From: Sphingomonas carotinifaciens
Lineage (GTDB): Bacteria > Pseudomonadota > Alphaproteobacteria > Sphingomonadales > Sphingomonadaceae
Reading direction: 5' to 3'
NCBI RefSeq assembly: GCF_009789535.1
Contig: NZ_WSUT01000005.1
Location: forward strand, 1,797,501 to 1,861,500
Length of the DNA stretch: 64,000 nucleotides
Shown here: one piece after another, positions 38,148-52,998 of the stretch
How positions within the stretch are numbered: position 1 is the stretch's first letter
How the letters are laid out: each line of letters begins with the position of its first letter
Position numbers and translations under genes: made by a program
The notes under the pieces: generated by a model
Told to the model about the DNA's origin: nothing
The model's database searches: none
Seen by the model: the letters and a program-made list of their open reading frames with translations, nothing else

Positions 38148-39592
38148 TGCTGCAAGGGACGGGGTCGGACGTGGGCAAGTCGGTGCTGGTCGCCGGGCTG
38201 TGCCGGCTCTTTGCCAATCGGGGGCTGAAGGTGCGGCCGTTCAAGCCGCAGAACATGTCGAACAATGCGGCGGTGGCCGTGGATGGCGGCGAGATCGGGC
38301 GGGCGCAGGCGTTGCAGGCGATCGCCGCGCGCACGCCGCCGACGACGGACATGAACCCGGTGCTGATGAAGCCGCAGTCCGACCGGACGTCGCAACTGGT
38401 GGTGCAGGGGCGGGTCGCAGGCGTGGTGCAGGCGGGGCGCTGGCGCGAGGCGAAGGCGGGGCTGATGACGCCGGTGCTGGCGTCCTATCGCCGGTTGCGC
38501 GGGCAAGCCGATCTGGTGATCGTGGAGGGGGCGGGAAGCCCGGCGGAGATCAACCTGCGCGACGGCGACATCGCCAATATGGGCTTTGCGCGCGCGGCGG
38601 GCGTGCCGGTGGTGCTGGTGGGCGATATCGACCGGGGCGGGGTGATCGCATCGCTGGTCGGCACGCGCGCGGTGCTGGACGAGGCGGATGCGGCGATGGT
38701 GCGCGGGTTCCTGATCAACAAGTTCCGCGGCGACCCGGCGCTGTTCGGCGAAGGCATGGCGGCGATCGAGACGCGGACCGGGTGGGAGGCGCTGGGGCTG
38801 GTGCCATGGCTGAACGCGGCGGCGCGCTTGCCGGCGGAGGATGCGGTGGCGCTCGACCGGATGGGCGGGGGCCAGGGGGTGGTGATCGCGGTGCCGATGC
38901 TGTCGCGGATCGCCAATTTCGACGATTTCGATGCGCTGGCGAGCGAGCCGGGCGTGCGGCTGGCGATGATCCCGCCGGGGCAGCCTTTGCCGGCCGATGC
39001 GGCGCTGGTGATCCTGCCGGGGAGCAAGGCGACGATCGCGGACTTGGCGTTCCTGCGCGCGCAGGGGTGGGACGTGGACCTGTTCGCGCATGTCCGGCGT
39101 GGCGGCCGGGTGCTGGGGATTTGCGGCGGATACCAGATGCTGGGGCGGCGGGTGTCCGATCCGGAGGGGATCGAGGGCGCGGCGGACAGCGTCGCGGGAC
39201 TGGGCCTGTTGCCGGTGGAGACCGAACTCGGCCGCGACAAGCGGGTGCGGGCGGTGACGGGCACGCTGTATGGCGGCGGGGGCGACTTTGCCGGGTACGA
39301 GATCCATGCCGGGGTGACGCGGGTGGACGCGGGAACGCCGCCGCTGCTTCGCTTCGAGGATGGCGGCGTCGATGGCGCGACCGCTGAGGATGGGCGGATC
39401 GCGGGCTGTTATGTCCATGGGTTGTTCGACCGGGTGGGCGCGCGGGGGCATTGGCTGAAGGTGATCGGGGCGGTGTCGGACGGGTGGGACCGCAGCGAGG
39501 CGATCGATGCGGCGCTGGATGCGATCGCGGGGGAACTGGAGGCGGTGGTGGCGGTGGAGCGGATATTGGCGCTGGCGGGGGAGGCGGCATGA
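38147..39592 (+). CDS. cobQ: Cobyric acid synthase
   Basis: A glutamine-dependent amidotransferase of 481 residues that amidates four side chains of adenosylcobyrinic a,c-diamide. The N-terminal ATPase domain has the P-loop-like [20 protein letters not shown], and the C-terminal GATase domain has the nucleophile region [14 protein letters not shown] and a catalytic His in CYVHGLFD. The ATG shares one base with the cbiB stop, and the end overlaps cobT. Its presence without the earlier ring genes suggests use of imported incomplete corrinoids. Confidence 0.95.
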
Positions 39593-40602
39593 TCGCCGAG
39601 GCGGAGGTGCGCGCGCATCTGGATGCGCTGGCCAAGCCGCGGGGCGCCATGGGCCGGCTGGAGGATGTGGCGGTGCGGCTGGCGCTGAGCCAGGGGTGGA
39701 TCGATCCGGAGACCCGGCCGCGGCAACTGGTGCTGTTCGCGGGCGACCATGGCTGTGTAGACGATGGCGTGTCGGCCTGGCCCTCGGCGGTGACGGGGGT
39801 GATGGTCGGGGCGATCCTGGGCGGGCGGGCGACGAGCAATGCGCTGGCGGCGGCGCAGGACTGTGCGCTCAGGCTGGTGGATGTCGGCGTGGCCGGGCCG
39901 CGCACCACCGATGCGCCGGCCTTTTTCCGCGATGCGCGGGTCGGTGACGGGACGGCGAGCCTTGCGCGGGGGCCTGCGATGTCGGTCGACGCGTTCGAGG
40001 CGGCATGGGCGGTGGGCGCCGACGAGGCGCGCCGCGCGGTCGGTGACGGCGCGGCGGTGCTGATCGCGGGCGAGATGGGGATCGGGAATACGACGCCGGC
40101 GGCATGCCTGACTGCGCTCATTACGGGGATCGAGGCCGATGCCGCGGTGGGGCGCGGGGCGGGTGCGGACGATGCGGTGATGGCGGCAAAGCGGGCGGTG
40201 GTGGCGGGGGCGGTGGCGCGGGCGCGGGGCGAGGGTGATGCGCGGGCGGCGATCGCGGGTATCTGCGGCTATGAAATCGCGGCGATGGCGGGCTTTTATG
40301 CGGAGGGGGCGCGGGCCGGCGTGACCCTGTTGATCGACGGCTATGTCGCGACGGCGGCGGCGCTGGTGGCGGAGCGGCTGGCGCCGGGGACGGCGCGGGC
40401 GATGATCGCGGCGCATCGCTCGGCCGAGCCGGGACACGCAGCGGCGCTGGCGGCGCTGGGGCTGGCGCCGATGCTGGAATGGGACATGCGGCTGGGCGAG
40501 GGAAGCGGGGCGCTGGTCGCCCTGCCGCTGCTCGACAGCGCGGCGGCGCTGCTGCGCGACGTGGCGCGGCTGGATGCGATCGGCGTGGGCCGTGCGGACT
40601 AG
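39589..40602 (+). CDS. cobT: Nicotinate-nucleotide--dimethylbenzimidazole phosphoribosyltransferase
   Basis: Makes alpha-ribazole phosphate from the lower-ligand base and nicotinate mononucleotide; 337 residues. The opening [18 protein letters not shown], the block [16 protein letters not shown] and [11 protein letters not shown] are typical. The catalytic Glu is E304 in RLGEGSGA. It overlaps cobQ by four bases. No bluB gene for dimethylbenzimidazole synthesis is seen in the window. Confidence 0.96.
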
Positions 40603-41365
40603 GGCGCCGTTCTGGGCACCGCCGCTGATGGCGGTACAGTTCCTGACGCGCGTGCCCGTGCCGTGGCTGGCGCGGCTGGACGGCGCAAGGGCGGGCGACG
40701 CGTTCGTGCGGTCGACCGGATGGCTGCCGCTGGTGGGGACCGCCATCGGGATCGTGACGGCGACCGTGTTCGCGCTGGGGCAGTTATGGTGGCCGCCGCT
40801 GGTCGCGCTGCTGGTCGCGCTGGCCGTGGAGGCGTGGCTGACCGGTGCGTTCCATGAGGATGCGGTGGCCGATTTCTGCGACGCGTTCGGGGCTGCGCGC
40901 GATGCGGAGACGACGCGGCGGATCATGAAGGACAGCCGGATCGGCAGTTACGGTGCGCTGGGGCTGGGACTGGCGGTCGCGCTGCGCGTGGCGGCGACGC
41001 TGGCGGTGCCGGGTTCGGTCGGGCTGTATGCGATCGTCGCCGCGGCCGGCATCGCACGGTGGTGCGCGGTGCTGTTGATGGCGATGGCGCCGCCGGCGGC
41101 GACGGGCGAGGGCGTCGCAAAGGATATCGGACGCCTGCCGCGACGATCCTTCTGGCTGGCGGCGGTGACCGTCCTGCCGGCGATCGGACTGCTGGCGGCC
41201 GGCGGACGATGGACTGCGTCGGTCGTGCTGGTGGTAATCAGCCTGATGCTGGTGTGGATCGCGCGCGGGATACGACGGCGGATCGGGGGCAGCACGGGGG
41301 ATTGTCTGGGCTTTGCGGCCTATGCGGCGCAGATACTGGTGCTGCTGGTGGTGGCCGGCGCGTGA
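40592..41365 (+). CDS. cobS: Adenosylcobinamide-GDP ribazoletransferase
   Basis: An inner-membrane cobalamin synthase of about 257 residues that joins adenosylcobinamide-GDP to alpha-ribazole (phosphate). Family blocks are AVQFLTRVPVPWL, LTGAFHEDAVADFCDAFGA and RIMKDSRIGSYGALGLGL, with six or so helices. The start is uncertain: GTG at 40592 gives a standard-length N-terminus and overlaps cobT by 11 bases; ATG at 40574 and ATG at 40628 are possible. The end overlaps the phosphatase gene. Confidence 0.92.
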   Translation: MRTRAPFWAPPLMAVQFLTRVPVPWLARLDGARAGDAFVRSTGWLPLVGTAIGIVTATVFALGQLWWPPLVALLVALAVEAWLTGAFHEDAVADFCDAFGAARDAETTRRIMKDSRIGSYGALGLGLAVALRVAATLAVPGSVGLYAIVAAAGIARWCAVLLMAMAPPAATGEGVAKDIGRLPRRSFWLAAVTVLPAIGLLAAGGRWTASVVLVVISLMLVWIARGIRRRIGGSTGDCLGFAAYAAQILVLLVVAGA

Positions 41366-41883
41366 CGGTGCGGCTGTTGCGGCACCCGCCGGTCGCCAAG
41401 GCCTGGGCCGGGCGGTGCTACGGCGTGTCGGACATGGGATGGAGCCGCGAAGGGCGGGCGATGGCGTGGTCGCTGGCGGCGGCGGTGCGGGCGGACCGGG
41501 TCGTGCATTCGGGGCTGGAGCGGACGCGGCGACTGGCCGAGATGCTGTGTTCCGCGCCGATCGAGGACGCGCGGTGGCGCGAGCGCGACTTCGGCGCGTG
41601 GGAGGGCCGGCGCTGGGACGCGATCTGGCGCGAGAGCGGAAATGCGATGGACGGCCTGATGACCGACCCGCACGGTTTCCGTCCGGGTGGCGGCGAGACG
41701 GGGGCGATGCTGGCCGCGCGGGTGCGGGCGGCCTGGGACGCGCTGCCCGACGCTGACCATGTGCTGGTGATCGCGCATGGCGGGTCGATCGCGACGCTCC
41801 GCTGCCTGTTGGCGGGGGCGCCGCTGACCGAGGCGGTGCGGTTCATCCCCGCCTGCGGCGAGATGGTGGAACTGGCGCGCTGA
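41362..41883 (+). CDS. Histidine phosphatase, probable alpha-ribazole phosphatase (CobC-like)
   Basis: A phosphoglycerate-mutase-fold phosphatase of 173 residues. The phosphohistidine is in LLRHPPV, with supporting ERDFGAWEGRRWD and the second His in VLVIAHGGSIA. The usual RHG tripeptide is RHP. Operon position after cobS, with a GTGA overlap, points to removal of phosphate from alpha-ribazole phosphate or cobalamin phosphate, the last step of loop assembly. The start is a GTG. Confidence 0.83.
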   Translation: MTVRLLRHPPVAKAWAGRCYGVSDMGWSREGRAMAWSLAAAVRADRVVHSGLERTRRLAEMLCSAPIEDARWRERDFGAWEGRRWDAIWRESGNAMDGLMTDPHGFRPGGGETGAMLAARVRAAWDALPDADHVLVIAHGGSIATLRCLLAGAPLTEAVRFIPACGEMVELAR

Positions 41884-42578: not shown

Positions 42579-42893
42579 TCGAGCATCCCGATTTGGGTGG
42601 ATTTCACTGGTCGATATGACCTAGCCTGTGTGGGACGGGGGATTGCGACAGGGTGAACGGACCGGCAGAATCGCGGTTTGGCGCAGCATTGTTGTCCAGC
42701 GGTGTCAGGAAACGCACAGATCATTGACGTTTCCACGTTCCATTGCATAGCTAAAGTTAATCTAGGTTACGGTGCGCTGGTTTGGAACGATGCACACGAC
42801 CGAACCGACATGTCGTGAAGCTACGGATCGATAAGCAAAAGATCGAGCCAGACAGCAGGAACGGGGGAACGGCGTTTGGAAGCGGAAGCGGAA
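42579..42893. other. Intergenic region upstream of the IclR gene
   Basis: About 315 bases between divergent genes. It is AT-richer than its surroundings, and a 7-bp inverted pair CGTTCCA / TGGAACG (42736-42742 and 42783-42789) is present with 40 bases between. It may hold the promoter and an operator of the IclR gene. I see no gene in it. Confidence 0.35.
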
Positions 42894-43676
42894 ATGGAAG
42901 ACGGCATCCTGGAGCGGGACGGCAAGCGGCTCTATCGCGCGCCCGCGCTGGAAAAGGGTCTGGATATCCTGGAGCTGCTGGCGGGTGAGGAACAGCCGCT
43001 GACGGTCAGCGCCATCGTGCAGCGACTGGGGCGATCCACGGGCGAACTGTTTCGCATGATCCAGGTGCTGGAGCATCGCGGTTTCGTGGAACAAGGACCC
43101 GCCGGCTATGTCATGACGCCGCGCCTGTTTCATCTGGGATTGAAGCGGCCGCCGGTGCGCAGCATGCTGGAACAGGCCCTGCCGATCATGCGGCAACTGA
43201 CCATCGATATCGGTCAATCCTGCCATCTGGGCATCCAGACCGGCAGCGACATGGCGGTGGTCGCGCGCATGGAGTCGACCGCGGCGGTGGGCTTTGCGGT
43301 ACGGGTCGGATATCGGCAGCCGTTGCACCGGACCTCCTCGGGAGCGGTGCTCTATGCGTTTCAGTCGCCCTCGATCCGGGGTGACTGGGAGCGGTCGTTC
43401 CAGCCGGCACCCTCGGCCGACGAACTGAACGCGTTCCGGGCGCAAGCCGACGAGATTCGCGTTACCGGCCTGGGGCGGCAGGATAACCCCTGCGTCAATG
43501 GGATGCGCGATCTGTCGGCGCCGATCCTGCGCGGCCGGCAGGCGATCGCGGTGTTGACCGTACCGTTCCTGCGCCTGACCGATTCGACGGTATCGGAAGA
43601 TGCCGCATGCAACGCGATCCGGGCGGCGGCGGCGGAGATTTCGAGCAGCTTGGCGTTCAACGACAGCCACGCCTGA
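42894..43676 (+). CDS. IclR family transcriptional regulator
   Basis: A 260-residue regulator. The N-terminal winged helix reads YRAPALEKGLDILELLAGEE and TVSAIVQRLGRSTGELFRMI, and the C-terminal effector domain has IGQSCHLGIQTGSDMAVVAR and GYRQPLHRTSSGAVLYAF. A TTG at 42876 (behind GGGGGA) is a possible earlier start; the ATG at 42894 is preferred. It stands upstream of the Ter-type cluster on the same strand, so it could control it, but IclR regulators more often govern carbon catabolism. Confidence 0.88.
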   Translation: MEDGILERDGKRLYRAPALEKGLDILELLAGEEQPLTVSAIVQRLGRSTGELFRMIQVLEHRGFVEQGPAGYVMTPRLFHLGLKRPPVRSMLEQALPIMRQLTIDIGQSCHLGIQTGSDMAVVARMESTAAVGFAVRVGYRQPLHRTSSGAVLYAFQSPSIRGDWERSFQPAPSADELNAFRAQADEIRVTGLGRQDNPCVNGMRDLSAPILRGRQAIAVLTVPFLRLTDSTVSEDAACNAIRAAAAEISSSLAFNDSHA

Positions 43677-43772: not shown

Positions 43773-44813
43773 ATGAAGACGATCTGGTTCGATCGCGGGC
43801 ATTCGGTCCGCAATGCGCTGGCCCTGATAAGGGCGGGGGCGAACGGGCGGGTGCGATTGATCGCCTCGCACCCTTATGCCGATGCCGCGGCGCTGGCGGC
43901 CGCCGATCTGGCGCTGATCGAGCCGATTACGGCGGACGGCTATCGCGACTGGTGTCTGGACATGTGCCGGGTGCACGGCGTCGACCTGTTCGTGCCCGGC
44001 ATGCGCCGCGACCTGATCGCGGGCGACGCGGCCGCCTTTGCCGCGCTCGGCACCCGGCTGGCGCTGCCGGCGGCGCCCGACATGCTGGACCTGCTGGACG
44101 ACAAATGGGCGTTCATGGACGCGGTGGCGGCGGCCGGGCTGCCGGTACCGCAGGCGTGGCTGGCGCGGGGCGGCGATGACGTGCGCCGCGCCGTCGCCGC
44201 CCTGCGCGGGCAGGGACTTGGCGCGTGCGTCAAGCCGCGGCGCGGCGTGTTCGGGGCGGGCTTCTGGCGGCTGGAGGACGAGCGGCCGCTGATCGCGACG
44301 CTGATGGATGTCGATGCGCGGACGATCGGGGTCGAGGCCTTTGCGCAGGCGCTGGACGACGGGCAGGCGCCCGACCTGCTGATACTGGAATATCTGCCGG
44401 GGCATGAGACGAGCGTCGATATGCTGGCGGACGGCGGCCGCGTGGTGAGCGCCGTCGCCCGGCGCAAGGAGCGCGTGGGGCAGTGGGTGGAAAGCGAGGG
44501 CGAGGCGATCGATCTGGCGGCAGCGACGGTGCAACTGTTCGGCCTGTCCGGCCTGATCAACGTGCAGATGATCGAGGATGCGGCCGGGCAGCTGCGGCTG
44601 ATCGAGGTCAATACGCGGATGAGCGGCGGGTGCCTGAACACCGTGTTTGCGGGCGTGAACCTGCCCTGGTGGCATGTCGCGCTGGAACTGGGGCTGGCGC
44701 ATGCGGACATGGTGCCGCGCCCCCGCGGCCGCGCGCTGGTGGCGGCGGTACCCGATGCGATCCGGCTGGATGCGCCGGCGCCGCCCTTTTCCGCGATGAT
44801 CCGCGACGAATAG
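43773..44813 (+). CDS. ATP-grasp ligase of the Ter biosynthetic cluster
   Basis: A 346-residue protein with an ATP-grasp fold, expected to form an amide or similar bond through an acyl-phosphate. The N-terminal Rossmann-like part opens with MKTIWFDRGHSVRNALALIR. Central ATP-binding features include LLDDKWAFMDAVAAAGLPVP, GACVKPRRGVFGAG and EYLPGHETSVDML; the C-terminal metal site is in LIEVNTRMSGGCLN. This type accompanies TerD-family genes with PRTase, HAD and CitE-like partners. The substrate is unknown. It starts ten bases after a nested hairpin. Confidence 0.85.
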   Translation: MKTIWFDRGHSVRNALALIRAGANGRVRLIASHPYADAAALAAADLALIEPITADGYRDWCLDMCRVHGVDLFVPGMRRDLIAGDAAAFAALGTRLALPAAPDMLDLLDDKWAFMDAVAAAGLPVPQAWLARGGDDVRRAVAALRGQGLGACVKPRRGVFGAGFWRLEDERPLIATLMDVDARTIGVEAFAQALDDGQAPDLLILEYLPGHETSVDMLADGGRVVSAVARRKERVGQWVESEGEAIDLAAATVQLFGLSGLINVQMIEDAAGQLRLIEVNTRMSGGCLNTVFAGVNLPWWHVALELGLAHADMVPRPRGRALVAAVPDAIRLDAPAPPFSAMIRDE

Positions 44814-44890
44814 CGGTTGCGGGCGCCCGCAGGGGCGGTCTAGCGTGGTGCGGACATCTTCCGATCTTTTGCCTTGGGAGGGGCAGCGCG

Positions 44891-45475
44891 ATGGTAAATC
44901 TTCAAAAAGGTCAGACGGTTCGATTGGAAAAGCGCGGTGGCGGCACGCTGACCCGCGTGGCCATGGGGCTGGGCTGGGACGTGAAAAAGGCCAAGGGGCT
45001 GTTCGGCGCGCTGCTGGGCGGCGGGGGCGGCGACATCGACCTGGATGCGTCCTGCCTGCTGTTCGATGCCGGCGGGCAGATGGTGGACCAGGTGTGGTTC
45101 CGGCAACTGACCAGCCGCGACGGCAGCATCGTCCATTCGGGCGACAATCTGACGGGGGCGGGTGCTGGCGATGACGAGACGATCAATGTCGACCTGACGC
45201 GTCTGCCCTCCACGGTGCGCGCGCTGGTGTTCACGGTGAACAGCTTTCGCGGCGACACGTTCGACCGGATCGACAATGCCTATTGCCGGCTGGTGGATGC
45301 CACCAACGGCAGCGAACTGGCGCGGTTCGATCTGTCGGGATCGGGCACGCATACCGGGCAGGTGATGGCGCAGGTGGTGCGCGTCGGCGACGGGTGGGAG
45401 ATGAAGGCGCTGGGCGAGAAGACCACGGGCCGCACCTTTCACGACATGATGGGGCCGATCACGGCCGCGTTGTAA
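44891..45475 (+). CDS. TerD family protein (first copy)
   Basis: A 194-residue TerD/TerE/TerZ-type protein, cytoplasmic, with a calcium-binding beta-sandwich. Both Ca-binding regions are intact: DIDLDAS (residues 48-54) and GDNLTGAG-AGDDE (about 83-95). It opens with [25 protein letters not shown] precedes the ATG. The family is tied to tellurite resistance and phage or colicin resistance, and is thought to take part in stress sensing at the membrane with TerC. A glycine-rich insert GALLGGGGG precedes the Ca motif. Confidence 0.92.
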   Translation: MVNLQKGQTVRLEKRGGGTLTRVAMGLGWDVKKAKGLFGALLGGGGGDIDLDASCLLFDAGGQMVDQVWFRQLTSRDGSIVHSGDNLTGAGAGDDETINVDLTRLPSTVRALVFTVNSFRGDTFDRIDNAYCRLVDATNGSELARFDLSGSGTHTGQVMAQVVRVGDGWEMKALGEKTTGRTFHDMMGPITAAL

Positions 45476-45489
45476 GGACGCCCCTCGCG

Positions 45490-46593
45490 ATGCGCGAACT
45501 GAGCCAGGGCGGCAATGCACCGGTGGCGGGGGACGCGGTGCGCGTCGCCCTGACCCTGCCGGCGGAGGCCGATGTGTCCGCTTACCTGCTGCGCGGGGAC
45601 GGGCGGGTGCGCGGCGATGCCGACATGCTGTTCTACAACCAGCCCGCCGATCCCGCGGGCGCGGTCCGGCTGGACGTGGCGACGCGGACCTTTGCGGTCA
45701 CCCTGTCGCGGCTGGACCCGGCGATCGAACGGATCGTGTTCTGCGTGACGGTGGACCGGGGCACGGTGGCCGCGCTGGAGGGCGCCGCGATCACGGCGGG
45801 CGATGTCGAATATCGCCCTCGACTGGCAGGGGCGAGCGAGGCGGCGATGATGCTGGGCGAGCTGTACCGGCGCGCCGGGCAGTGGAAGTTCCGCGCGGTG
45901 GGGCAGGGCTTCGACGGCGGGCTGGCGCCGCTCGCCCGCTCGTTCGGGATCGAGGTGGCGGAGCCTGTCGCCGCGCCGCCGCCACCGCCACCGCCGCCAC
46001 CCCCGCCGGTGCGGCTGAGCAAGGTGACGCTGGACAAGCCGCGCCAGACGGTCAGCCTTGCCAAGCCGACCGGCGAGATCGTCATCAACCTGAACTGGTC
46101 GCGCGGCAAGGGCGGCTGGGGGCGCAGCGGCGCGGTCGACTTGGACCTGGGCTGCCTGTTCGAGCTGGACGATGGCTGGAAGGGCGTGATCCAGGCGCTG
46201 GGCGGCACCTTCGGCGATTATGAGGGCGAGCCGTGGATCGCGCTGTCCGCCGACGATCGATCGGGCGACACCGCCAGCGGCGAGACGATGCGGGTAAACG
46301 GCCGGCATTGGGACCGAATCCGCCGCATCCTCGTTTTCGCGCTGATCTACGAAGGCGTGCCGAACTGGCAGGCGACGGACGGCGTGGTGACGGTGAAGAT
46401 GCCCGGCGAACAGGATATCGAAGTGCGCATGACCGAGGGTCGCAACGACCGCCGGCTGTGCGCGGTCGCGATGCTGGAAAATGTCGGCGGCCGGTTCCAG
46501 GCGATGCGGCTGGTGGATTACCATCAGGGGCAGCGCAAGCTGGACGAAGCCTATCGCTGGGGCTTGCGCTGGACGGCGGGGTCAAAGGACTGA
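45490..46593 (+). CDS. terA: TerA family protein with two TerD-like domains
   Basis: A 367-residue protein. The first domain (about 1-157) is TerD-like, but lacks both DLDAS and GDDE calcium motifs: it reads EADVSAYLLRGDGRVRGDAD. An 11-residue polyproline run (P163-P173) leads to the second domain, which keeps an AVDLDLGCLFELDDG strand and ALSADDRSGD. TerA proteins in enteric plasmids have a similar two-part plan. It is 14 bases behind the first TerD gene and probably forms a complex with the TerD proteins. Confidence 0.85.
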   Translation: MRELSQGGNAPVAGDAVRVALTLPAEADVSAYLLRGDGRVRGDADMLFYNQPADPAGAVRLDVATRTFAVTLSRLDPAIERIVFCVTVDRGTVAALEGAAITAGDVEYRPRLAGASEAAMMLGELYRRAGQWKFRAVGQGFDGGLAPLARSFGIEVAEPVAAPPPPPPPPPPPVRLSKVTLDKPRQTVSLAKPTGEIVINLNWSRGKGGWGRSGAVDLDLGCLFELDDGWKGVIQALGGTFGDYEGEPWIALSADDRSGDTASGETMRVNGRHWDRIRRILVFALIYEGVPNWQATDGVVTVKMPGEQDIEVRMTEGRNDRRLCAVAMLENVGGRFQAMRLVDYHQGQRKLDEAYRWGLRWTAGSKD

Positions 46594-46638
46594 CATAAGC
46601 GCCCCATACACCAAAAACGGCGCATCCGGGGGACATTC

Positions 46639-47727
46639 GTGCTGCTGAAATATTACAAGGGTTCGTTCATCTTCACGGGCATCTGCCTGGCCATCGCGGC
46701 CTGGCTGGGGATGCAGAGCACCGGCACCGTCGGCGGCACGCTGGGCGTGCTGTGGATCGTGGCGGTGCTGGGCGTGCTGGAGGTGTCGCTGTCGTTCGAC
46801 AACGCCGTCGTCAACGCGACGGTGCTGCGCGACATGGACGAGAAATGGCGCCGCCGCTTCCTGACCTGGGGCATCCTGATCGCTGTGTTCGGCATGCGCA
46901 TCGTCTTCCCGCTGGCAATCGTCGCGATCGCGGCCAGCCTGGGGCCGGTCGAGGCGCTGAAGCTGGCGGCGGGCGATCCCGTGCGCTACGAACAGATCAT
47001 CACCTCCGCCCATGTCGGCATTTCAGGCTTTGGCGGCGCGTTCCTGGCGATGGTCGGCCTGAACTTCTTCTTCGACGACGAGAAGGAGGAGCACTGGATC
47101 GGCGTGATCGAGCGGCCGCTGGCCAAGCTGACCGACATTTCGGGTCTGGCGGTCGGCATCGTGCTGCTGGCGATGTACGTGATCTCGCGCTTCATCCCCG
47201 TCGAGGAGGCGATGACCTACATCACCTCGGGCATCTTCGGGCTGTTGACCTATATCGCGGTGCATGCGCTGGGCGTGCTGCTGGAAGGCGACGGCGATGC
47301 CGCGACGGGCGCGGCGGCACGGTCGGGCCTGGCATCCTTCCTATATCTGGAAGTGCTGGACGCCAGCTTCTCGTTCGACGGGGTGATCGGTGCGTTTGCC
47401 TTGTCGAACAACCTGTTCATCATCGCGCTGGGCCTTGGCATCGGGGCGATGTTCGTGCGTTCGATGACGATCATGCTGGTCGATAAGGGCACGCTGACCC
47501 AGTATCGCTATCTGGAGCACGGCGCCTTTTACGCGATCATCGCGCTGGCCGCGATCATGCTGCTGTCGGTCGAGTTCGAGATTCCGGAGACGGTGACCGG
47601 CCTGATCGGCGCCGCGCTGATCGGCCTGGCCTTCTGGGCGTCGGTGCGCAGCAACAAGCGGGATCCGGAACAGCCGATCGAGGCGGCCGATCCGGTCAAG
47701 CCGTCGGGCACCGCGCTGAAGGACTAA
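46639..47727 (+). CDS. TerC-like DUF475 integral membrane protein
   Basis: A 362-residue inner-membrane protein with about nine helices. The two TerC repeat motifs are [20 protein letters not shown] and [20 protein letters not shown], whose acidic residues inside helices suggest ion binding. It belongs to the DUF475 branch of TerC. The GTG at 46639 is preceded by GGGGGA and gives a standard N-terminus. Ter models hold that TerC forms the membrane anchor for a TerD complex; metal transport, such as manganese, is known for other TerC branches. Confidence 0.9.
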
Positions 47728-47786
47728 GCGCAACCTTTACGTCAATATCGGTCGATGATCGGCCGGCAAGCAATGGAGACGATCAG

Positions 47787-48362
47787 ATGGCGGTATCCCT
47801 GTCCAAGGGCGGCAATGTCAGCCTGTCGAAGGAAGCACCCGGCCTGAAGGCGGTACGCGTCGGCCTGGGTTGGGACACGCGGGTGACGGACGGCAGCGGG
47901 TTCGACCTGGATGCGTCGGTGTTCCTGCTGAACGAGGCGGGACAGGTGCGGTCGGACGCGGACTTCGTGTTCTACAACAACAAGCTGGGCGCAAACGGCG
48001 CGGTCGAGCATCAGGGCGACAACCTGACCGGCGAAGGCTCGGGCGACGACGAGACGGTGAGCGTCAACCTCGACACGCTGCCTGCCGACATCGCCAAGAT
48101 CAGCTTTGCGGTGACGATCCATGAGGCCGAGGCGCGTCGGCAGAATTTCGGCATGGTATCGAACGCGTTCATCCGCGTGCTGAACGCCGATGGCGGCACC
48201 GAGATCGCGCGCTACGACCTGTCGGAGGACGCATCGACCGAGACGGCGATGATCTTCGGCGACCTGTATCGCCATGGTGGCGAGTGGAAGTTCAAGGCGA
48301 TCGGCCAGGGCTTTGCCGGTGGCCTGGGGCCGCTGGCCCGGTCGTTCGGCGTCAACGTCTAG
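47787..48362 (+). CDS. terD: TerD family protein (second copy)
   Basis: A 191-residue canonical TerD/TerE protein: [20 protein letters not shown], calcium motif DLDAS (residues 40-44), GDNLTGEG and GDDE (86-89), and the C-terminal [20 protein letters not shown]. It is closer to plasmid TerD and TerE than the first copy is. A GGAGA site lies before the ATG. It leads the biosynthetic half of the cluster, ending three bases before the PRTase gene. Confidence 0.95.
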
Positions 48363-48365
48363 GCG

Positions 48366-49469
48366 ATGATGGCGGCGGGGGGGCAGGTGTCGGCAGCGGC
48401 GGTGTCGCTGCCGACGGGGCAGTTGCGTGTGGAGGTGACGGGGGGCGATCCGGACTGGCCGCTCGCGCGGCTGTGCGGGTTCGCGGCGCGGCGCAATCCC
48501 AGGCGCGGTTTCCTGGTGGTGTCCAAGGTGCTGGGGCGGCATTGGCCGGCGCGGCCGGGGGAGATGCGCGCCGCGGTGCGCGCGCTGGCGGCGCGGTTGC
48601 CGGGCGATCTGGCGGGGCCCATCGTGGTGATGGGGCTGGCCGAGACGGCGGTGTGCCTGGGACAGACGCTGCATGAGGAGATGGCGCGGGGCGACGCGCT
48701 GTTCCTGCATTCGACGCGGCAGCGGATCGACCATCCGCTGCTGGCGCGGTTCGAGGAGCCGCACAGCCATGCGTCCGCGCATCTGGTGTACGAGCCGGTG
48801 GAGCCGGGGTTCGAGGCGCCGAGGACGCTGGTGCTGGTCGATGACGAGGTGTCGACGGGGACGACGCTGACCAATCTGGCGAGGGTGCTGGTGGCGCGCT
48901 GGCCGAGCGTCGAGCGGATCGTGGTGGCGACGCTGACCGACTGGTCGGGGGGCGGATGGCTGACAGCGATGCCGCGGCCGGCGACGATCGCGAGCCTGTT
49001 GCAAGGGCGGCTGGACTGGACGCCGGGCGGGGTGGCGGAGGACGTGGCCGGGTTCGAGGCGGCGGCGGGAACGCTGGGCGTGCTGGACGATCCCGTCAAT
49101 CACGGGCGGCTGGGCCGCCGTGACAGTGATGTTGCCGGGCCGGACAGCGAGCCGGCGGTGCACGGTCCGCTGCGGATCGTGGGGACGGGGGAGTTCACCT
49201 ATGCGCCGTTCCGGCTGGCGGAGCGGCTGGAGGCGGCGGGGCTGGACGTGGTGGTGCAGGCGACGAGCCGCAGTCCGGCGCGGATCGGCGGGGCGCTGGC
49301 CTGCGCGCTGTGTTTCGACGACAATTATGGGACGGGTGTGCCGAACTTCCTTTATAATGCGGATGCCGCCGATGGGCGGACGACATGGATCTGCCACGAG
49401 ACGCCGGATGTCGATCCGGCGCTGGTCGCGGCGCTGGATGCAGAAACGCTGCGCTGGAGCGCGCGCTGA
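48366..49469 (+). CDS. Phosphoribosyltransferase with C-terminal TRSP-type domain
   Basis: A 367-residue protein. The PRPP-binding loop is VLVDDEVSTGTTL, residues 156-168, typical of type I PRTases. The C-terminal part (LRIVGTGEFTYAPFRLAERL and FLYNADAADGRT) fits the TRSP domain seen only with Ter-linked PRTases. It would transfer a base or other nucleophile onto PRPP. ATGs at 48366 and 48369 are both possible. It overlaps the HAD gene by one base. Confidence 0.84.
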   Translation: MMAAGGQVSAAAVSLPTGQLRVEVTGGDPDWPLARLCGFAARRNPRRGFLVVSKVLGRHWPARPGEMRAAVRALAARLPGDLAGPIVVMGLAETAVCLGQTLHEEMARGDALFLHSTRQRIDHPLLARFEEPHSHASAHLVYEPVEPGFEAPRTLVLVDDEVSTGTTLTNLARVLVARWPSVERIVVATLTDWSGGGWLTAMPRPATIASLLQGRLDWTPGGVAEDVAGFEAAAGTLGVLDDPVNHGRLGRRDSDVAGPDSEPAVHGPLRIVGTGEFTYAPFRLAERLEAAGLDVVVQATSRSPARIGGALACALCFDDNYGTGVPNFLYNADAADGRTTWICHETPDVDPALVAALDAETLRWSAR

Positions 49470-50209
49470 TGCGGGCGATCGCGCTGGTCGATCTGGACGA
49501 CACGCTGTTCCAGACGCGGGCGAAATGCCCCGAGGACCTGGCCGTCGAGGCGCTGACCCCGATCGGCTTTGCGGTCGACGGGGCACCGCTGAGCTATGCC
49601 ACCCCGCGGCAGATGCGCTTCATCGAATGGCTGGCCGAGACGACGCATCTGGTGCCCGTCACCGGCCGCAGCCTGGATGCGCTGCGCCGGGTGAACGTGC
49701 CCTTTGCCGCCGGCGTGTGCGCGCATGGCGGCGTGGTGCTGGGCGAGGATGGCGAGCCGGATGAAGGCTGGGCGGCCGAGATCGCGCGTGCCGCGGCCGA
49801 CCATGCCGGGGCGCTGGAGGGCTATGCCGCGGCGATCACCCATGAGGCGGAAGCACAGGGCGTGTCGCTGAGGGTACGGGTGCTGGAGGAGGCGGGCGTG
49901 CCGATCTACACGCTGGCCAAGCATCCCGAGGCGGATCATGCCGCCTTGTTCAAGGTGGTGGACGCCGCGATCCCGGACGTGCCGGCGGGATGGACGCTGC
50001 ATCGCAACGGCAACAACGTCGCGATGATGCCGCCCTATCTGGGCAAGGCCAATGCGGTGGCGCATCTGCTGCCCGGCCTTCGCGCGCGGTTTCCGGAGGC
50101 GAGCGTGATCGGGGTGGGCGACAGCCTGACCGATGCACCGTTCATGGCGCTGTGCGATTTCGCGATGCTGCCGACGCGATCCCAACTGGCCGACCGGCTA
50201 TTCGCATGA
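49469..50209 (+). CDS. HAD-superfamily hydrolase of the Ter cluster
   Basis: A 246-residue phosphatase. Motif I is VDLDDTLF (nucleophile D8, acid/base D10), motif II is VTGRS, and motif IV is GVGDSLTDAPFM. The cap between residues 80 and 190 resembles sucrose-phosphatase-like HADs. Within the cluster it would remove phosphate from the product of the PRTases. Its start shares a base with the preceding stop and its end overlaps the StiP-type gene (ATGA). Confidence 0.86.
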   Translation: MRAIALVDLDDTLFQTRAKCPEDLAVEALTPIGFAVDGAPLSYATPRQMRFIEWLAETTHLVPVTGRSLDALRRVNVPFAAGVCAHGGVVLGEDGEPDEGWAAEIARAAADHAGALEGYAAAITHEAEAQGVSLRVRVLEEAGVPIYTLAKHPEADHAALFKVVDAAIPDVPAGWTLHRNGNNVAMMPPYLGKANAVAHLLPGLRARFPEASVIGVGDSLTDAPFMALCDFAMLPTRSQLADRLFA

Positions 50210-51294
50210 GCGGCTTTTCCGGAAGCTACGATCCGGCGGACGTCACCTTCCTGTTGAAACCGGTGGTGCTGGCAGCCACCGACGTCGCGGCCAAGGAACG
50301 GGCGATCCAGTCCGGCGCGCGGCATTATTCGGAGATGATCGCGCCCGAGGCGGTGCCCGATGCCGCCTATCTGGCGCTGTACGATGCCGCCCTGCAACGC
50401 AACGGCCTGAGGCTGGCGAGCGATATCGCCGCGCTGGCCGCGCATCTGGCGGCGCGGGCAGAGGGCCGCGAGGTGGTGATCGCCAGCCTGGCGCGGGCGG
50501 GGACGCCGATCGGCGTGCTGCTGCTGCGCACGCTGCGTGCGCACGGCGTCAAAGCGGCGCATTATGCGATCAGCATCATCCGCGACCGGGGGATCGACCG
50601 CGCGGCGCTGGCCCATATCGCGGCGCGGCACGATCCGGCGGACGTGGTGTTCGTCGATGGCTGGACGGGCAAGGGGGCGATCGCGGGCGAGTTGCAGCGC
50701 AGCCTGGCCGACCGGCCGTTCGGCTTTGCGCCGGTGCTGGCGGTGGTGGCGGACCCGGCGGGCGTGGCCGATATCGCGGCGACCGCGGACGATTACCTGA
50801 TCGCGTCGGGCCTGTTGAACGGCATCGTGTCCGGGCTGGTCAGCCGGTCGATCCTGTCGGATGCGGTGGTGGGGCCGGGGGATTTCCATGCCTGCGTCAC
50901 CTATCCCGAACATGCGGCGGCGGACCGGTCGCGCGCATTCGTCGACGCGCTGGCGCCTATGGCGGCGCTGGCGCAACCGCGGCCGATCGGGGGGCACGGG
51001 GCGGAGCGCGCGGCCTTGCGCGCGGCGAGCGGTGCACTGGTGACGCAGATGCTGGCGGCGATCGGCAGCGAGGATGCGAACCGGGTGAAGCCGGGCATCG
51101 CGGAGGCGACACGCGCCCTGTTGCGGCGGATGCCCGAGCGGCTGTTCGTGCGCGATCCCGGCGATGCCGATGTCGCGCACCTGATCCATCTGGCCGAACA
51201 GGGCGGCGTGCCGGTGGAGCGGCTGGATCCCGATAGTCGGTACCGGGCGGTGACGATCATCCGCTCGCTGGGCCGGGACCGGGTGGCGGCATGA
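50206..51294 (+). CDS. StiP-type phosphoribosyltransferase-like protein (PELOTA-domain PRTase family)
   Basis: A 362-residue protein of the family annotated as cysteine protease StiP, which comparative studies reinterpret as a PRTase with an RNA-binding-like domain. The opening FSGSYDPADVTFLLKPV is the family hallmark. The PRPP-loop-like motif VDGWTGKG lies at residues 150-157. A C-terminal segment (VTIIRSLGRDRV) ends the protein. I favour a PRTase over a protease because of the loop and the neighbours. It overlaps the next gene by four bases. Confidence 0.8.
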   Translation: MSGFSGSYDPADVTFLLKPVVLAATDVAAKERAIQSGARHYSEMIAPEAVPDAAYLALYDAALQRNGLRLASDIAALAAHLAARAEGREVVIASLARAGTPIGVLLLRTLRAHGVKAAHYAISIIRDRGIDRAALAHIAARHDPADVVFVDGWTGKGAIAGELQRSLADRPFGFAPVLAVVADPAGVADIAATADDYLIASGLLNGIVSGLVSRSILSDAVVGPGDFHACVTYPEHAAADRSRAFVDALAPMAALAQPRPIGGHGAERAALRAASGALVTQMLAAIGSEDANRVKPGIAEATRALLRRMPERLFVRDPGDADVAHLIHLAEQGGVPVERLDPDSRYRAVTIIRSLGRDRVAA

Positions 51295-52184
51295 CCGTGT
51301 CCGCGATCGAACTGGGCGCGACCCTGTACATGCCGTGCACGCGGGGCGACCTGGCGGCGGCGCTGGCGCGGGCGGCGGCGTCGGGGCTGCGATCGGCGGT
51401 GTTGTGCGTCGAGGACTCGGTGCATGCGCGCGACGTGCCGGCGGCGCTGGACAATCTGGCGGCGGTGTTGCCGGTCCTTGGCGCCATTCCGCTGGCGGTG
51501 TTTGTCCGACCGCGAAGTGCGGGCATGCTGGAGCATATCCTGCACCTGGACGGGATCGGCCATGCGGCAGGCTTCGTGATCCCCAAGGCGCATGCCGACA
51601 GCCTGCCCGCCTATCTGGCGCTGCCGCTGCACGAGGGGCACCGGCTGATGCCGACGCTGGAAACGCGCGAGGTATGCGACGGGCACGAGATGCGCCGCCT
51701 GCGCGACCAGTTGCTGGGGCAGCAGGAGCGTATCCTGGCGCTGCGCATCGGCGGCAACGACCTGTTGCAGATACTGGGGGCGCGGCGATCGGCGACGCGC
51801 ACCGTTTATGACGGTCCGCTCGGCCCGCTGATCGGGACGCTGGTGGCGACGTTCGCGCCCTGGGGGTTCGAGCTGACCGCGCCGGTGATGGAGAATTTCG
51901 CGAACCCTGCGCTGCTCGCCGCCGAGGTGGAGCGCGACCTGGACCATGGGCTGTGCGCCAAGACCGCGATCCACCCGTCCCAGGTGCCGGTGATCCATGC
52001 CGCGCTGGCGGTGCCGATGGCGCAACTGGCCGAAGCGCAGGCGATCCTCGGCGAGGACAGCCCGGCGGTGTTCAACAGCGCGGGCGTGATGTGCGAACCT
52101 GCAACGCATGCCCGCTGGGCGCGGCGGGTGATGGCGCGGGCCGAAGCGTTCGGGACGACGGGCGCCGAACTGAAGATCGCGTGA
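51291..52184 (+). CDS. CitE-like HpcH/HpaI lyase of the Ter cluster
   Basis: A 297-residue TIM-barrel protein of the citrate-lyase beta/HpcH aldolase group. Visible features are LYMPCTRGD, SAVLCVEDSVHARDVP (metal-binding Glu and Asp), LRIGGNDLLQILGARRS and KTAIHPSQVPVI. It would cleave or form a C-C bond adjacent to a carboxylate. It is the last enzyme of the likely pathway. No citrate-lyase alpha or gamma genes are near, so it is not citrate lyase. Confidence 0.86.
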   Translation: MTVSAIELGATLYMPCTRGDLAAALARAAASGLRSAVLCVEDSVHARDVPAALDNLAAVLPVLGAIPLAVFVRPRSAGMLEHILHLDGIGHAAGFVIPKAHADSLPAYLALPLHEGHRLMPTLETREVCDGHEMRRLRDQLLGQQERILALRIGGNDLLQILGARRSATRTVYDGPLGPLIGTLVATFAPWGFELTAPVMENFANPALLAAEVERDLDHGLCAKTAIHPSQVPVIHAALAVPMAQLAEAQAILGEDSPAVFNSAGVMCEPATHARWARRVMARAEAFGTTGAELKIA

Positions 52185-52200
52185 CGTGACGGAGGACGAG

Positions 52201-52998
52201 ATGGCCGATTTCAGGACGAAGATCGACGAGCAGCAGGGCAATGGCATGCGGCTGGAACTCTTTCAGTTCAAGCGCAAGAGCTATGCCATGGCGCGCGCGG
52301 TGCAGGCGACGGCGCAGGGCGGAACGGCCGGGCAGGCCGCCGCGGCCCCGGTCTATGTCTACCCCGCGCATGAGGCGACCGCGCGGCAGGTTCGCATTGT
52401 GCTGGAGGGCGGGGCTGCGCTGCTGGAGCCGGGGGCGCTGCAATATGCGCACGGCGCGATCCATACCGAGGTGCAGCGCAACGAGAGCGGCGGTTTTCTG
52501 GCACGGGCGGTGAAATCGGCGGGGTCGGGTGAATCGGCCTATGCGACGCGCTTTTCGGGGCGGGGCGAGGTGTGGACCGAGCCGACCACCAAGCATTTCA
52601 TCCTGGCGGCGATGGACGGGCCGCAGGACTCGCTGATCCTGGACGACGGCGCCTTTTATGCCTGCGACGCGAACATCCAGGTGTCGACGCATGTCCACCG
52701 CTCGGTCGCCGGGCTGTTCTCCGGCAACGGGCTGATGCAGCCCAAGCTGACGGGTGCGGGCGCGTTCGTGGTCGAGGCGCCGGTGCCGGTGGACGAGATC
52801 GAGGTGATCGAACTGGACGGGTCGGGCGAACTGATCGTCGATGGCGACCTGATGCTGATGTATTCGGCGACGTTGCAGGTGGATTTGCGGCCGCTGGTGC
52901 AGGGCATTCGCAACGCGATGCGCAGCGGCGAGGGGCTGGTGTTCGTCTTTCGCGGGCGCGGCACGGTATGGCTGACGCCTACCGCCAAGCTGGGGTGA
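52201..52998 (+). CDS. AIM24 family protein
   Basis: A 265-residue protein of the AIM24 (TIGR00266-like) family, a beta-rich fold of unknown function first known from mitochondria. Blocks include QVRIVLEGGAALLEPGALQY, EVWTEPTTKHFILAAM and GEGLVFVFRGRGTVWLTP. GGAGG at correct spacing chooses the ATG at 52201 over a GTG at 52186. It closes the Ter cluster, 16 bases after the CitE-like gene, so it may be part of the same response. Confidence 0.85.
   Translation: MADFRTKIDEQQGNGMRLELFQFKRKSYAMARAVQATAQGGTAGQAAAAPVYVYPAHEATARQVRIVLEGGAALLEPGALQYAHGAIHTEVQRNESGGFLARAVKSAGSGESAYATRFSGRGEVWTEPTTKHFILAAMDGPQDSLILDDGAFYACDANIQVSTHVHRSVAGLFSGNGLMQPKLTGAGAFVVEAPVPVDEIEVIELDGSGELIVDGDLMLMYSATLQVDLRPLVQGIRNAMRSGEGLVFVFRGRGTVWLTPTAKLG

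What the first reader, a model, noticed from the sequence alone, without database searches (positions are those of the whole stretch)
43773..52998. A ten-gene Ter-type stress-response cluster with an apparent metabolite pathway
ATP-grasp, TerD, TerA, TerC/DUF475, TerD, PRTase-TRSP, HAD, StiP-type PRTase, CitE-like lyase and AIM24 all lie on one strand, and the enzyme genes from PRTase to CitE overlap by 1-4 bases. The Ter-dependent stress-response model of Anantharaman, Iyer and Aravind proposes that such enzymes make a nucleoside-like compound. Here the full set with two PRTases and a CitE lyase stands in a chromosome otherwise full of household genes. My suggested order is PRTase transfer onto PRPP, HAD dephosphorylation, CitE-type side-chain trimming and ATP-grasp ligation; that order is inference.
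Basis: partly seen in the sequence, partly recalled or inferred. Interest (0 to 1): 0.85.

Follow-up and report, generated by a model that had tools for sequence, protein, structure and literature searches.

The report
Chromosomal Ter stress cluster with ribosylation enzymes
A Sphingomonas chromosome carries a patchily distributed version of a known bacterial stress-response gene cluster; two phosphoribosyltransferase-like proteins and one phosphatase form its most conserved enzyme core, and a relative of that phosphatase has already been crystallised under the name trehalose phosphatase.

Summary
Nine of ten match the expected Pfam families, several named for the Ter operon; the HAD has no Pfam hit. 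So this is a new member of the published Ter-associated biosynthetic cluster, not a new kind. It is patchy: StiP is strong in 17 of 295 genomes of the genus. It is not the 'full set'.

(1) PRTase_2 and StiP pass their cut-offs in the same 12 genomes of a 398-genome phylum sample. (2) In 9 of 9 StiP-positive Bradyrhizobium genomes there is no TerD, and CitE is broken in 10 of 10 loci, yet PRTase-HAD-StiP stays open with dN/dS below 1: the trio can outlive the Ter genes. (3) The HAD matches PDB 6cj0 'Trehalose phosphatase' over its length; a gene 92.5% identical to 6cj0 lies inside a P. aeruginosa plasmid Ter cluster. Trehalose-6-phosphate is unlikely to be its natural substrate.

The product remains unknown; a ribosylated, dephosphorylated metabolite is most likely.

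The parts
43773..44813 (+). ATP-grasp ligase of the Ter type (346 aa); optional member
   Evidence: Pfam ATPgrasp_Ter 7e-34; PDB 2pn1 E 1e-6; E<1e-20 in 15 of 38 StiP+ genomes
44891..45475 (+). TerD-domain protein 1 (194 aa)
   Evidence: Pfam TerD 4e-45
45490..46593 (+). TerA-like protein: N-terminal TerD domain, proline run, C-terminal extension (367 aa)
   Evidence: Pfam TerD residues 25-152, 1e-28; sequence
46639..47727 (+). DUF475/TerC integral membrane protein (362 aa, GTG start)
   Evidence: Pfam DUF475 2e-113, TerC 2e-19; NF010620 over its cut-off
47787..48362 (+). TerD-domain protein 2 (191 aa)
   Evidence: Pfam TerD 1e-84
48366..49469 (+). Phosphoribosyltransferase with C-terminal TRSP domain (367 aa); vicinal DD at 159-160
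49469..50209 (+). HAD-IIB-like phosphatase (246 aa)
   Evidence: PDB 6cj0/6d3v 'Trehalose phosphatase' E 7e-42, 39% identity; weak TIGR01484 7.5e-5, under its cut-off
50206..51294 (+). StiP: divergent phosphoribosyltransferase fold plus C-terminal PELOTA/L7Ae-like domain (362 aa)
51291..52184 (+). CitE/HpcH-like C-C bond lyase (297 aa); tailoring member
   Evidence: Pfam C-C_Bond_Lyase 9e-84; PDB 3qll citrate lyase E 4e-11
52186..52998 (+). AIM24 protein (270 aa, GTG start); found after CitE in most sphingomonad loci
   Evidence: Pfam AIM24 9e-39; follows CitE in 15 of 17 sphingomonad loci
42876..43676 (+). Upstream IclR-family regulator (266 aa); link to the cluster unproven
   Evidence: Pfam IclR_C 2e-17, HTH_IclR 2e-14; found by tblastn in 1 of 17 sphingomonad loci, the nearest relative L046

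Best explanation
A chromosomal, patchily distributed Ter-type stress cluster with a small-molecule pathway. Shown here: gene content, order, predicted folds, and which genes travel together. Inferred: PRTase-TRSP and StiP attach ribose-5-phosphate from PRPP to an acceptor; the HAD removes the 5-phosphate; the CitE-type lyase and ATP-grasp, where present, trim and ligate a side chain. The TerD/TerA/DUF475 arm senses or handles metal and envelope stress and probably uses the product, but it is separable, because the PRTase-HAD-StiP trio persists where Ter genes are absent. The trehalose-phosphatase name of the HAD's relatives fits a phosphatase for a ribose- or sugar-linked phosphate better than a trehalose pathway.
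For: Families. Synteny. PRTase_2 and StiP over cut-off in the same 12 genomes of 398. PRTase folds. HAD belongs with the crystallised 'Trehalose phosphatase'; its plasmid relative lies between PRTase and StiP. OtsA and OtsB occur in the same 25 of 33 StiP-positive genomes and both are missing in 8. Trio kept without TerD or intact CitE in Bradyrhizobium.
Against: No product, substrate or transcript is known. StiP lacks the second Asp of the usual PRTase DD motif (Gly at 152 in 31 of 32), so its catalysis is uncertain; its best Foldseek match is only E 2.7e-4 with TM 0.24 by query length. dN/dS among the nine close Bradyrhizobium copies is only moderately low (medians 0.35, 0.17, 0.29; maxima 0.66, 0.26, 0.48), from few changes and non-independent pairs. 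No HAD was found beside StiP in L067, and in 17 of 63 actinobacterial loci, some of them short contigs, none was detected.
Confidence: 0.6

Rival explanations
1. O-ribosylation, as in capsule enzymes: a PRTase-fold enzyme transfers ribose-5-phosphate from PRPP to a sugar, polyol or other hydroxyl acceptor, and the HAD removes the phosphate. The product is a glycoside, not a nucleoside.
Against: PyrR and HPRT entries score within 1 Z unit of CriT, so the ranking is a tie. PRTase-TRSP keeps the canonical DD motif and is nearest to APRT. No glycosyltransferase domain was found among the ten genes.
Confidence: 0.2
2. StiP is an RNA-binding regulator or RNA-acting enzyme: its PRTase fold senses PRPP or a nucleotide and its L7Ae-like domain binds a structured RNA, in the way PyrR couples a PRTase fold to RNA.
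Against: StiP comes with PRTase-TRSP in 12 of 12 genomes and keeps invariant residues in its PRTase loops, as expected of an enzyme. No RNA partner was looked for.
Confidence: 0.15
3. The HAD is a real trehalose-6-phosphate phosphatase and the cluster regulates trehalose or T6P under stress.
For: Relatives crystallised as 'Trehalose phosphatase'; extra-chromosomal P. aeruginosa TPP assayed in a T6P study (PMC6838324 passages); 25 of 33 StiP-positive genomes have OtsA and could make T6P.
Against: OtsA and a genuine OtsB (PF02358) occur in the same 25 of 33 genomes, none has OtsA without OtsB, and 8 lack both; in 7 of those 8 a HAD still lies beside StiP. The window HAD does not hit PF02358. Other routes to T6P were not searched.
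Confidence: 0.05
4. The Bradyrhizobium trio is a decaying remnant with no function, so the 'core' is an artefact.
For: CitE broken in 10 of 10 loci; IS66 and IS3 genes annotated near the plasmid copy; short divergence among nine of the ten copies (dS at most 0.07).
Against: All 30 trio reading frames are open and dN/dS medians are 0.35, 0.17 and 0.29; the older L166 copy, with its own CitE decay, gives 0.14-0.20 against the others.
Confidence: 0.2

Closest known systems
Ter-associated biosynthetic module and ter locus of IncHI2-type plasmids (example pEC5502-NDM5)
   Same: ATP-grasp, PRTase, a gene at the HAD match, StiP and HpcH/CitE genes in this order beside TerD-family and TerC genes
   Different: The plasmid has its TerD, TerC and TerB genes divergent from the enzymes, plus TerW, VWA, TerY-C and PP2C genes; the window has all ten genes on one strand, DUF475 in place of TerC, AIM24 added, and none of those extra families among the ten genes or the seven neighbours scanned
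P. aeruginosa plasmid p2017-45-85 Ter cluster
   Same: ATP-grasp, PRTase, 'trehalose phosphatase', StiP, HpcH lyase, TerD genes and TerC on one strand
   Different: Has TerB and a second HAD; Ter genes follow the enzymes instead of preceding them; no AIM24 is listed in the stretch (the gene table is incomplete)
CriT-CrpP of Bcs3 (H. influenzae b capsule) and Cj1432 (C. jejuni capsule)
   Same: PRTase fold coupled to a HAD-like phosphatase; departure from the vicinal DD motif
   Different: Single polypeptide with glycosyltransferase domains making a polymer; about 10% identity to StiP; acceptor of StiP unknown

Membership tests
Ter-associated biosynthetic module | PRTase_2 with TRSP domain | tested here: met
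Ter-associated biosynthetic module | StiP PRTase with PELOTA domain | tested here: met
Ter-associated biosynthetic module | HAD phosphatase between the PRTases | tested here: met
   no Pfam hit
Ter-associated biosynthetic module | CitE-like C-C lyase and Ter ATP-grasp | tested here: met
Ter-associated biosynthetic module | Linked TerD and TerC-type genes | tested here: met
   TerC role presumably taken by DUF475
Ter-associated biosynthetic module | Makes a nucleoside-like metabolite | not testable with these tools
   prediction in the literature only (passages)
Complete ter locus (TerB, TerF, TelA, TerW, TerY) | These genes beside the cluster | tested here: inconclusive
   none among the ten genes or seven neighbouring frames; the rest of the genome was not searched for them
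Trehalose-6-phosphate phosphatase (OtsB) | PF02358 Trehalose_PPase match | tested here: not met
   no PF02358 hit for the window HAD; the genome's own OtsB is at C5:253339
Trehalose-6-phosphate phosphatase (OtsB) | T6P hydrolysis as biological role | not testable with these tools
   genome co-occurrence speaks against it
Cysteine protease (the database name of StiP) | Invariant catalytic cysteine | tested here: not met
   best Cys column is 81% of 32 sequences
CriT/CrpP O-ribosyltransferase pair | PRTase fold for StiP | tested here: met
CriT/CrpP O-ribosyltransferase pair | CriT-specific relationship rather than any PRTase | tested here: inconclusive
CriT/CrpP O-ribosyltransferase pair | Transfer of ribose-5-phosphate to a hydroxyl acceptor | not testable with these tools
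   needs an in vitro assay

The most novel reading that the evidence does not exclude
The unit that matters is the PRTase-HAD-StiP trio, not the Ter operon. It makes a ribosylated, non-nucleobase compound by CriT/CrpP-like chemistry, works on its own in Bradyrhizobium without any TerD protein, and was recruited into Ter clusters, with CitE and ATP-grasp as optional tailoring. Its phosphatase has been studied for years under the wrong pathway name.
Probability: 0.15. Interest if true: 0.75.

Novelty: new member of a known kind. Interest (0 to 1): 0.42.

Why it matters
The metabolite of the Ter system has been predicted since 2012; I saw no identified product in the search listings or in the passages read. 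The cluster sits in Sphingomonas, where it can be deleted and profiled. The trio in Bradyrhizobium is a three-gene test bed free of TerD. The link to PDB 6cj0 means that a member of the pathway already has a crystal structure and has been made as a recombinant protein, so substrate screening can start from there.

Tried and rejected
Defence system: PADLOC gave no hit for any of the ten proteins. Chance clustering: rejected by synteny. Cysteine protease reading of StiP: no invariant Cys. Trehalose pathway: see rivals. Promoter and terminator scan: 0 promoters against 1.2 expected, 4 terminators against 4.1; uninformative, and sphingomonad promoters may not fit sigma-70. The TRSP domain was not tested by fold search on its own: matches span residues 25-221, so nothing is claimed about its fold. 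Of the nine StiP matches at Foldseek E<=0.001 one is DndA, not a PRTase.

Thresholds and dropped rows. ATPgrasp_Ter at E<=0.001 rings in 38 of 38 genomes and 13 of 14 controls, mostly in frames of about 1100 residues; I counted only E<1e-20. CitE at E<=0.001 rings in 36 of 38; I counted only E<1e-70 (25). Weak rows dropped: G151 (1 of 18), G909 (1 of 10), 10 of 13 under the StiP cut-off, 4 of 16 and 20 of 32. Of the 39 strongly StiP-positive genomes found, I gave 33; G419, with a broken contig, was left out throughout, and five Bradyrhizobium were left out of the first two. G419 is also missing from the 17 sphingomonad loci. That searches drew the same 398 genomes is inferred from their equal size and shared handles. 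Loci were chosen by StiP, and the actinobacterial set comes from the best 80 of 553 candidates, so linkage counts are not a random sample. Several loci are the same contigs under two ids; (dN/dS medians 0.27, 0.15, 0.27) counted such duplicates, one search does not.

Literature: Anantharaman 2012 and Cross 2018 FASEB J are not held. One search, pairing trehalose phosphatase with Ter terms, found 176 papers with two or more terms and listed 20; none of those 20 has a trehalose term; the other 156 were not seen.

Full report
WHAT IS THERE. Ten frames on the + strand of the window, 43773-52998, were confirmed with start, stop and spacing: ATP-grasp, TerD, TerA-like, DUF475/TerC, TerD, PRTase-TRSP, HAD, StiP, CitE-like lyase, AIM24. 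Pfam assigns nine of ten above their curated cut-offs. PADLOC has no match. The genome is 4,094,655 bases in 7 contigs and the window lies in contig C5, 3,353,608 bases long. The genus is Sphingomonas by the record titles of near relatives (L074, P0122). Neighbours scanned with Pfam are ordinary: DBI_PRT, CobS, a histidine phosphatase, DUF4197 and an IclR regulator upstream, a frame without hit and a TonB receptor downstream.

HOW COMMON AND HOW CONSERVED. StiP was used as the marker. It is strong in 17 of 295 genomes of the genus, own genome included (an eighteenth match, G151, is weak and partial), over cut-off in 3 of 149 of the family sample and in 12 of 398 of the phylum sample. The spread is patchy, which suggests horizontal transfer or repeated loss; I built no tree. 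Seventeen sphingomonad loci were fetched (15 of the 16 other positives of the genus and 2 of the family; G419 left out). In 17 of 17 PRTase, HAD, StiP and CitE follow each other and TerD genes lie upstream; AIM24 is found in 15, DUF475 in 15 and ATP-grasp in 8 within the stretch fetched. The window is a shortened version: 16 of these 17 genomes have two tandem full-length TerD genes and 7 of 17 a second TerA-like gene before the PRTase. Here a TerD paralogue sits alone about 554 kb away; G428, the nearest relative, likewise has its second TerD on another contig.

THE CORE. PRTase_2 and StiP pass their cut-offs in the same 12 genomes of the 398-genome phylum sample. Across 38 StiP-positive genomes full-length Ter-type CitE (E<1e-70) is in 25, TerD in 28 and Ter-type ATP-grasp (E<1e-20) in 15. 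In the genus of G821 (Bradyrhizobium, by record titles) 9 of 265 genomes carry StiP strongly. None of these 9 has TerD. CitE is broken in 10 of 10 Bradyrhizobium loci, counting the plasmid copy of B. elkanii USDA 94: six keep a fragment detectable by tblastn and four keep none. The trio PRTase-HAD-StiP is open in all 10; median dN/dS among nine close copies is 0.35, 0.17 and 0.29 for pairs with dS above 0.02, and L166 against the others gives 0.18-0.20, 0.14-0.15 and 0.16-0.17. The pairs are not independent and the L166 values partly reflect time before the loss. G684, another genome of the class with a different gene order, also has the trio and no TerD; as it is not among the matches I take it for another genus.

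THE PHOSPHATASE. The window HAD matches PDB 6cj0, 6d3v and 6d3w, named trehalose phosphatase, at E 7e-42 over residues 2-242. On P. aeruginosa plasmid CP109756.1 a gene annotated trehalose phosphatase lies between the PRTase and StiP of a Ter cluster and is 92.5% identical to 6cj0 over 240 residues. PMC6838324 (passages read) reports an extra-chromosomal TPP of P. aeruginosa and names Cys85 and Cys231; the plasmid HAD has Cys at 85, 231 and 239, the PDB chain at 87 and 233, two positions on by its tag. I take this as good but indirect evidence that the assayed enzyme is a Ter-cluster HAD. The passages name T6P as substrate for the nematode enzymes and speak of the bacterial ones only as phosphatase activity of TPPs; the primary paper (Cross 2018) is not held, and that it reports T6P hydrolysis is my recall. 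Is T6P the natural substrate? OtsA occurs in 25 of 33 StiP-positive genomes and true OtsB in the same 25. No genome has OtsA without OtsB, and 8 have neither; in 7 of these 8 the HAD still lies beside StiP. A trehalose role is therefore unlikely.

MECHANISM. Shown: the genes, their order, their predicted folds, which ones travel together, and that the trio can exist alone. Inferred: ribosyl transfer from PRPP, 5-phosphate removal, optional C-C cleavage and ATP-driven ligation, with the Ter arm as sensor or membrane partner. A solved precedent for a PRTase fold followed by a HAD is O-ribosylation in capsule synthesis (PMC10299916 and PMC12096443, passages read). This is why I keep a glycoside product open beside a nucleoside.

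KNOWN OR NEW. The kind is known: the model is described in PMC7824862 and PMC8115787 (passages), both citing Anantharaman et al. 2012, which I could not read. A reference layout in an IncHI2 plasmid is given. In the two Klebsiella papers the passages seen concern terC and terZ-F; I saw no test of the enzyme module, but read only passages. I found no paper that joins the P. aeruginosa phosphatase to the Ter cluster among the 20 listed of 176, nor one on Ter-free trios; the latter was not searched for by name, and searches used Ter and StiP terms. Verdict: an ordinary member of a known kind in itself, with two follow-up observations that make an old open question easier to test.

Noticed in passing
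L082, L083, L084, L090, L165-L170: Bradyrhizobium loci with an open PRTase-HAD-StiP trio, a CitE broken at different points, and no TerD in nine of nine genomes; one copy is on a conjugative plasmid near IS66 and IS3 genes.
   Followed up: partly
L164:8989-9747: P. aeruginosa plasmid gene annotated trehalose phosphatase lies inside a Ter cluster and is 92.5% identical to PDB 6cj0.
   Followed up: yes
L001:8743-9315 (G000:C5:2404754-2405314): A lone TerD paralogue about 554 kb from the cluster, 70% identical to the window's second TerD; its neighbours were only read, not identified.
   Followed up: partly
window 39451-41883: Just upstream lie cobalamin genes: DBI_PRT phosphoribosyltransferase, CobS and a histidine phosphatase, unrelated in family to the Ter enzymes.
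   Followed up: partly
window 52186-52998: AIM24 follows CitE in 15 of 17 sphingomonad loci, so it may be a lineage-specific part of the system.
   Followed up: partly
L068 (G684:C41): Genome of the same class with PRTase, StiP and HAD in a different order and no TerD.
   Followed up: partly
plasmid collection: HAD relatives occur in 2555 plasmid records, most often Klebsiella, Escherichia, Enterobacter and Salmonella; 2551 are under 60% identity to the window's.
   Followed up: no
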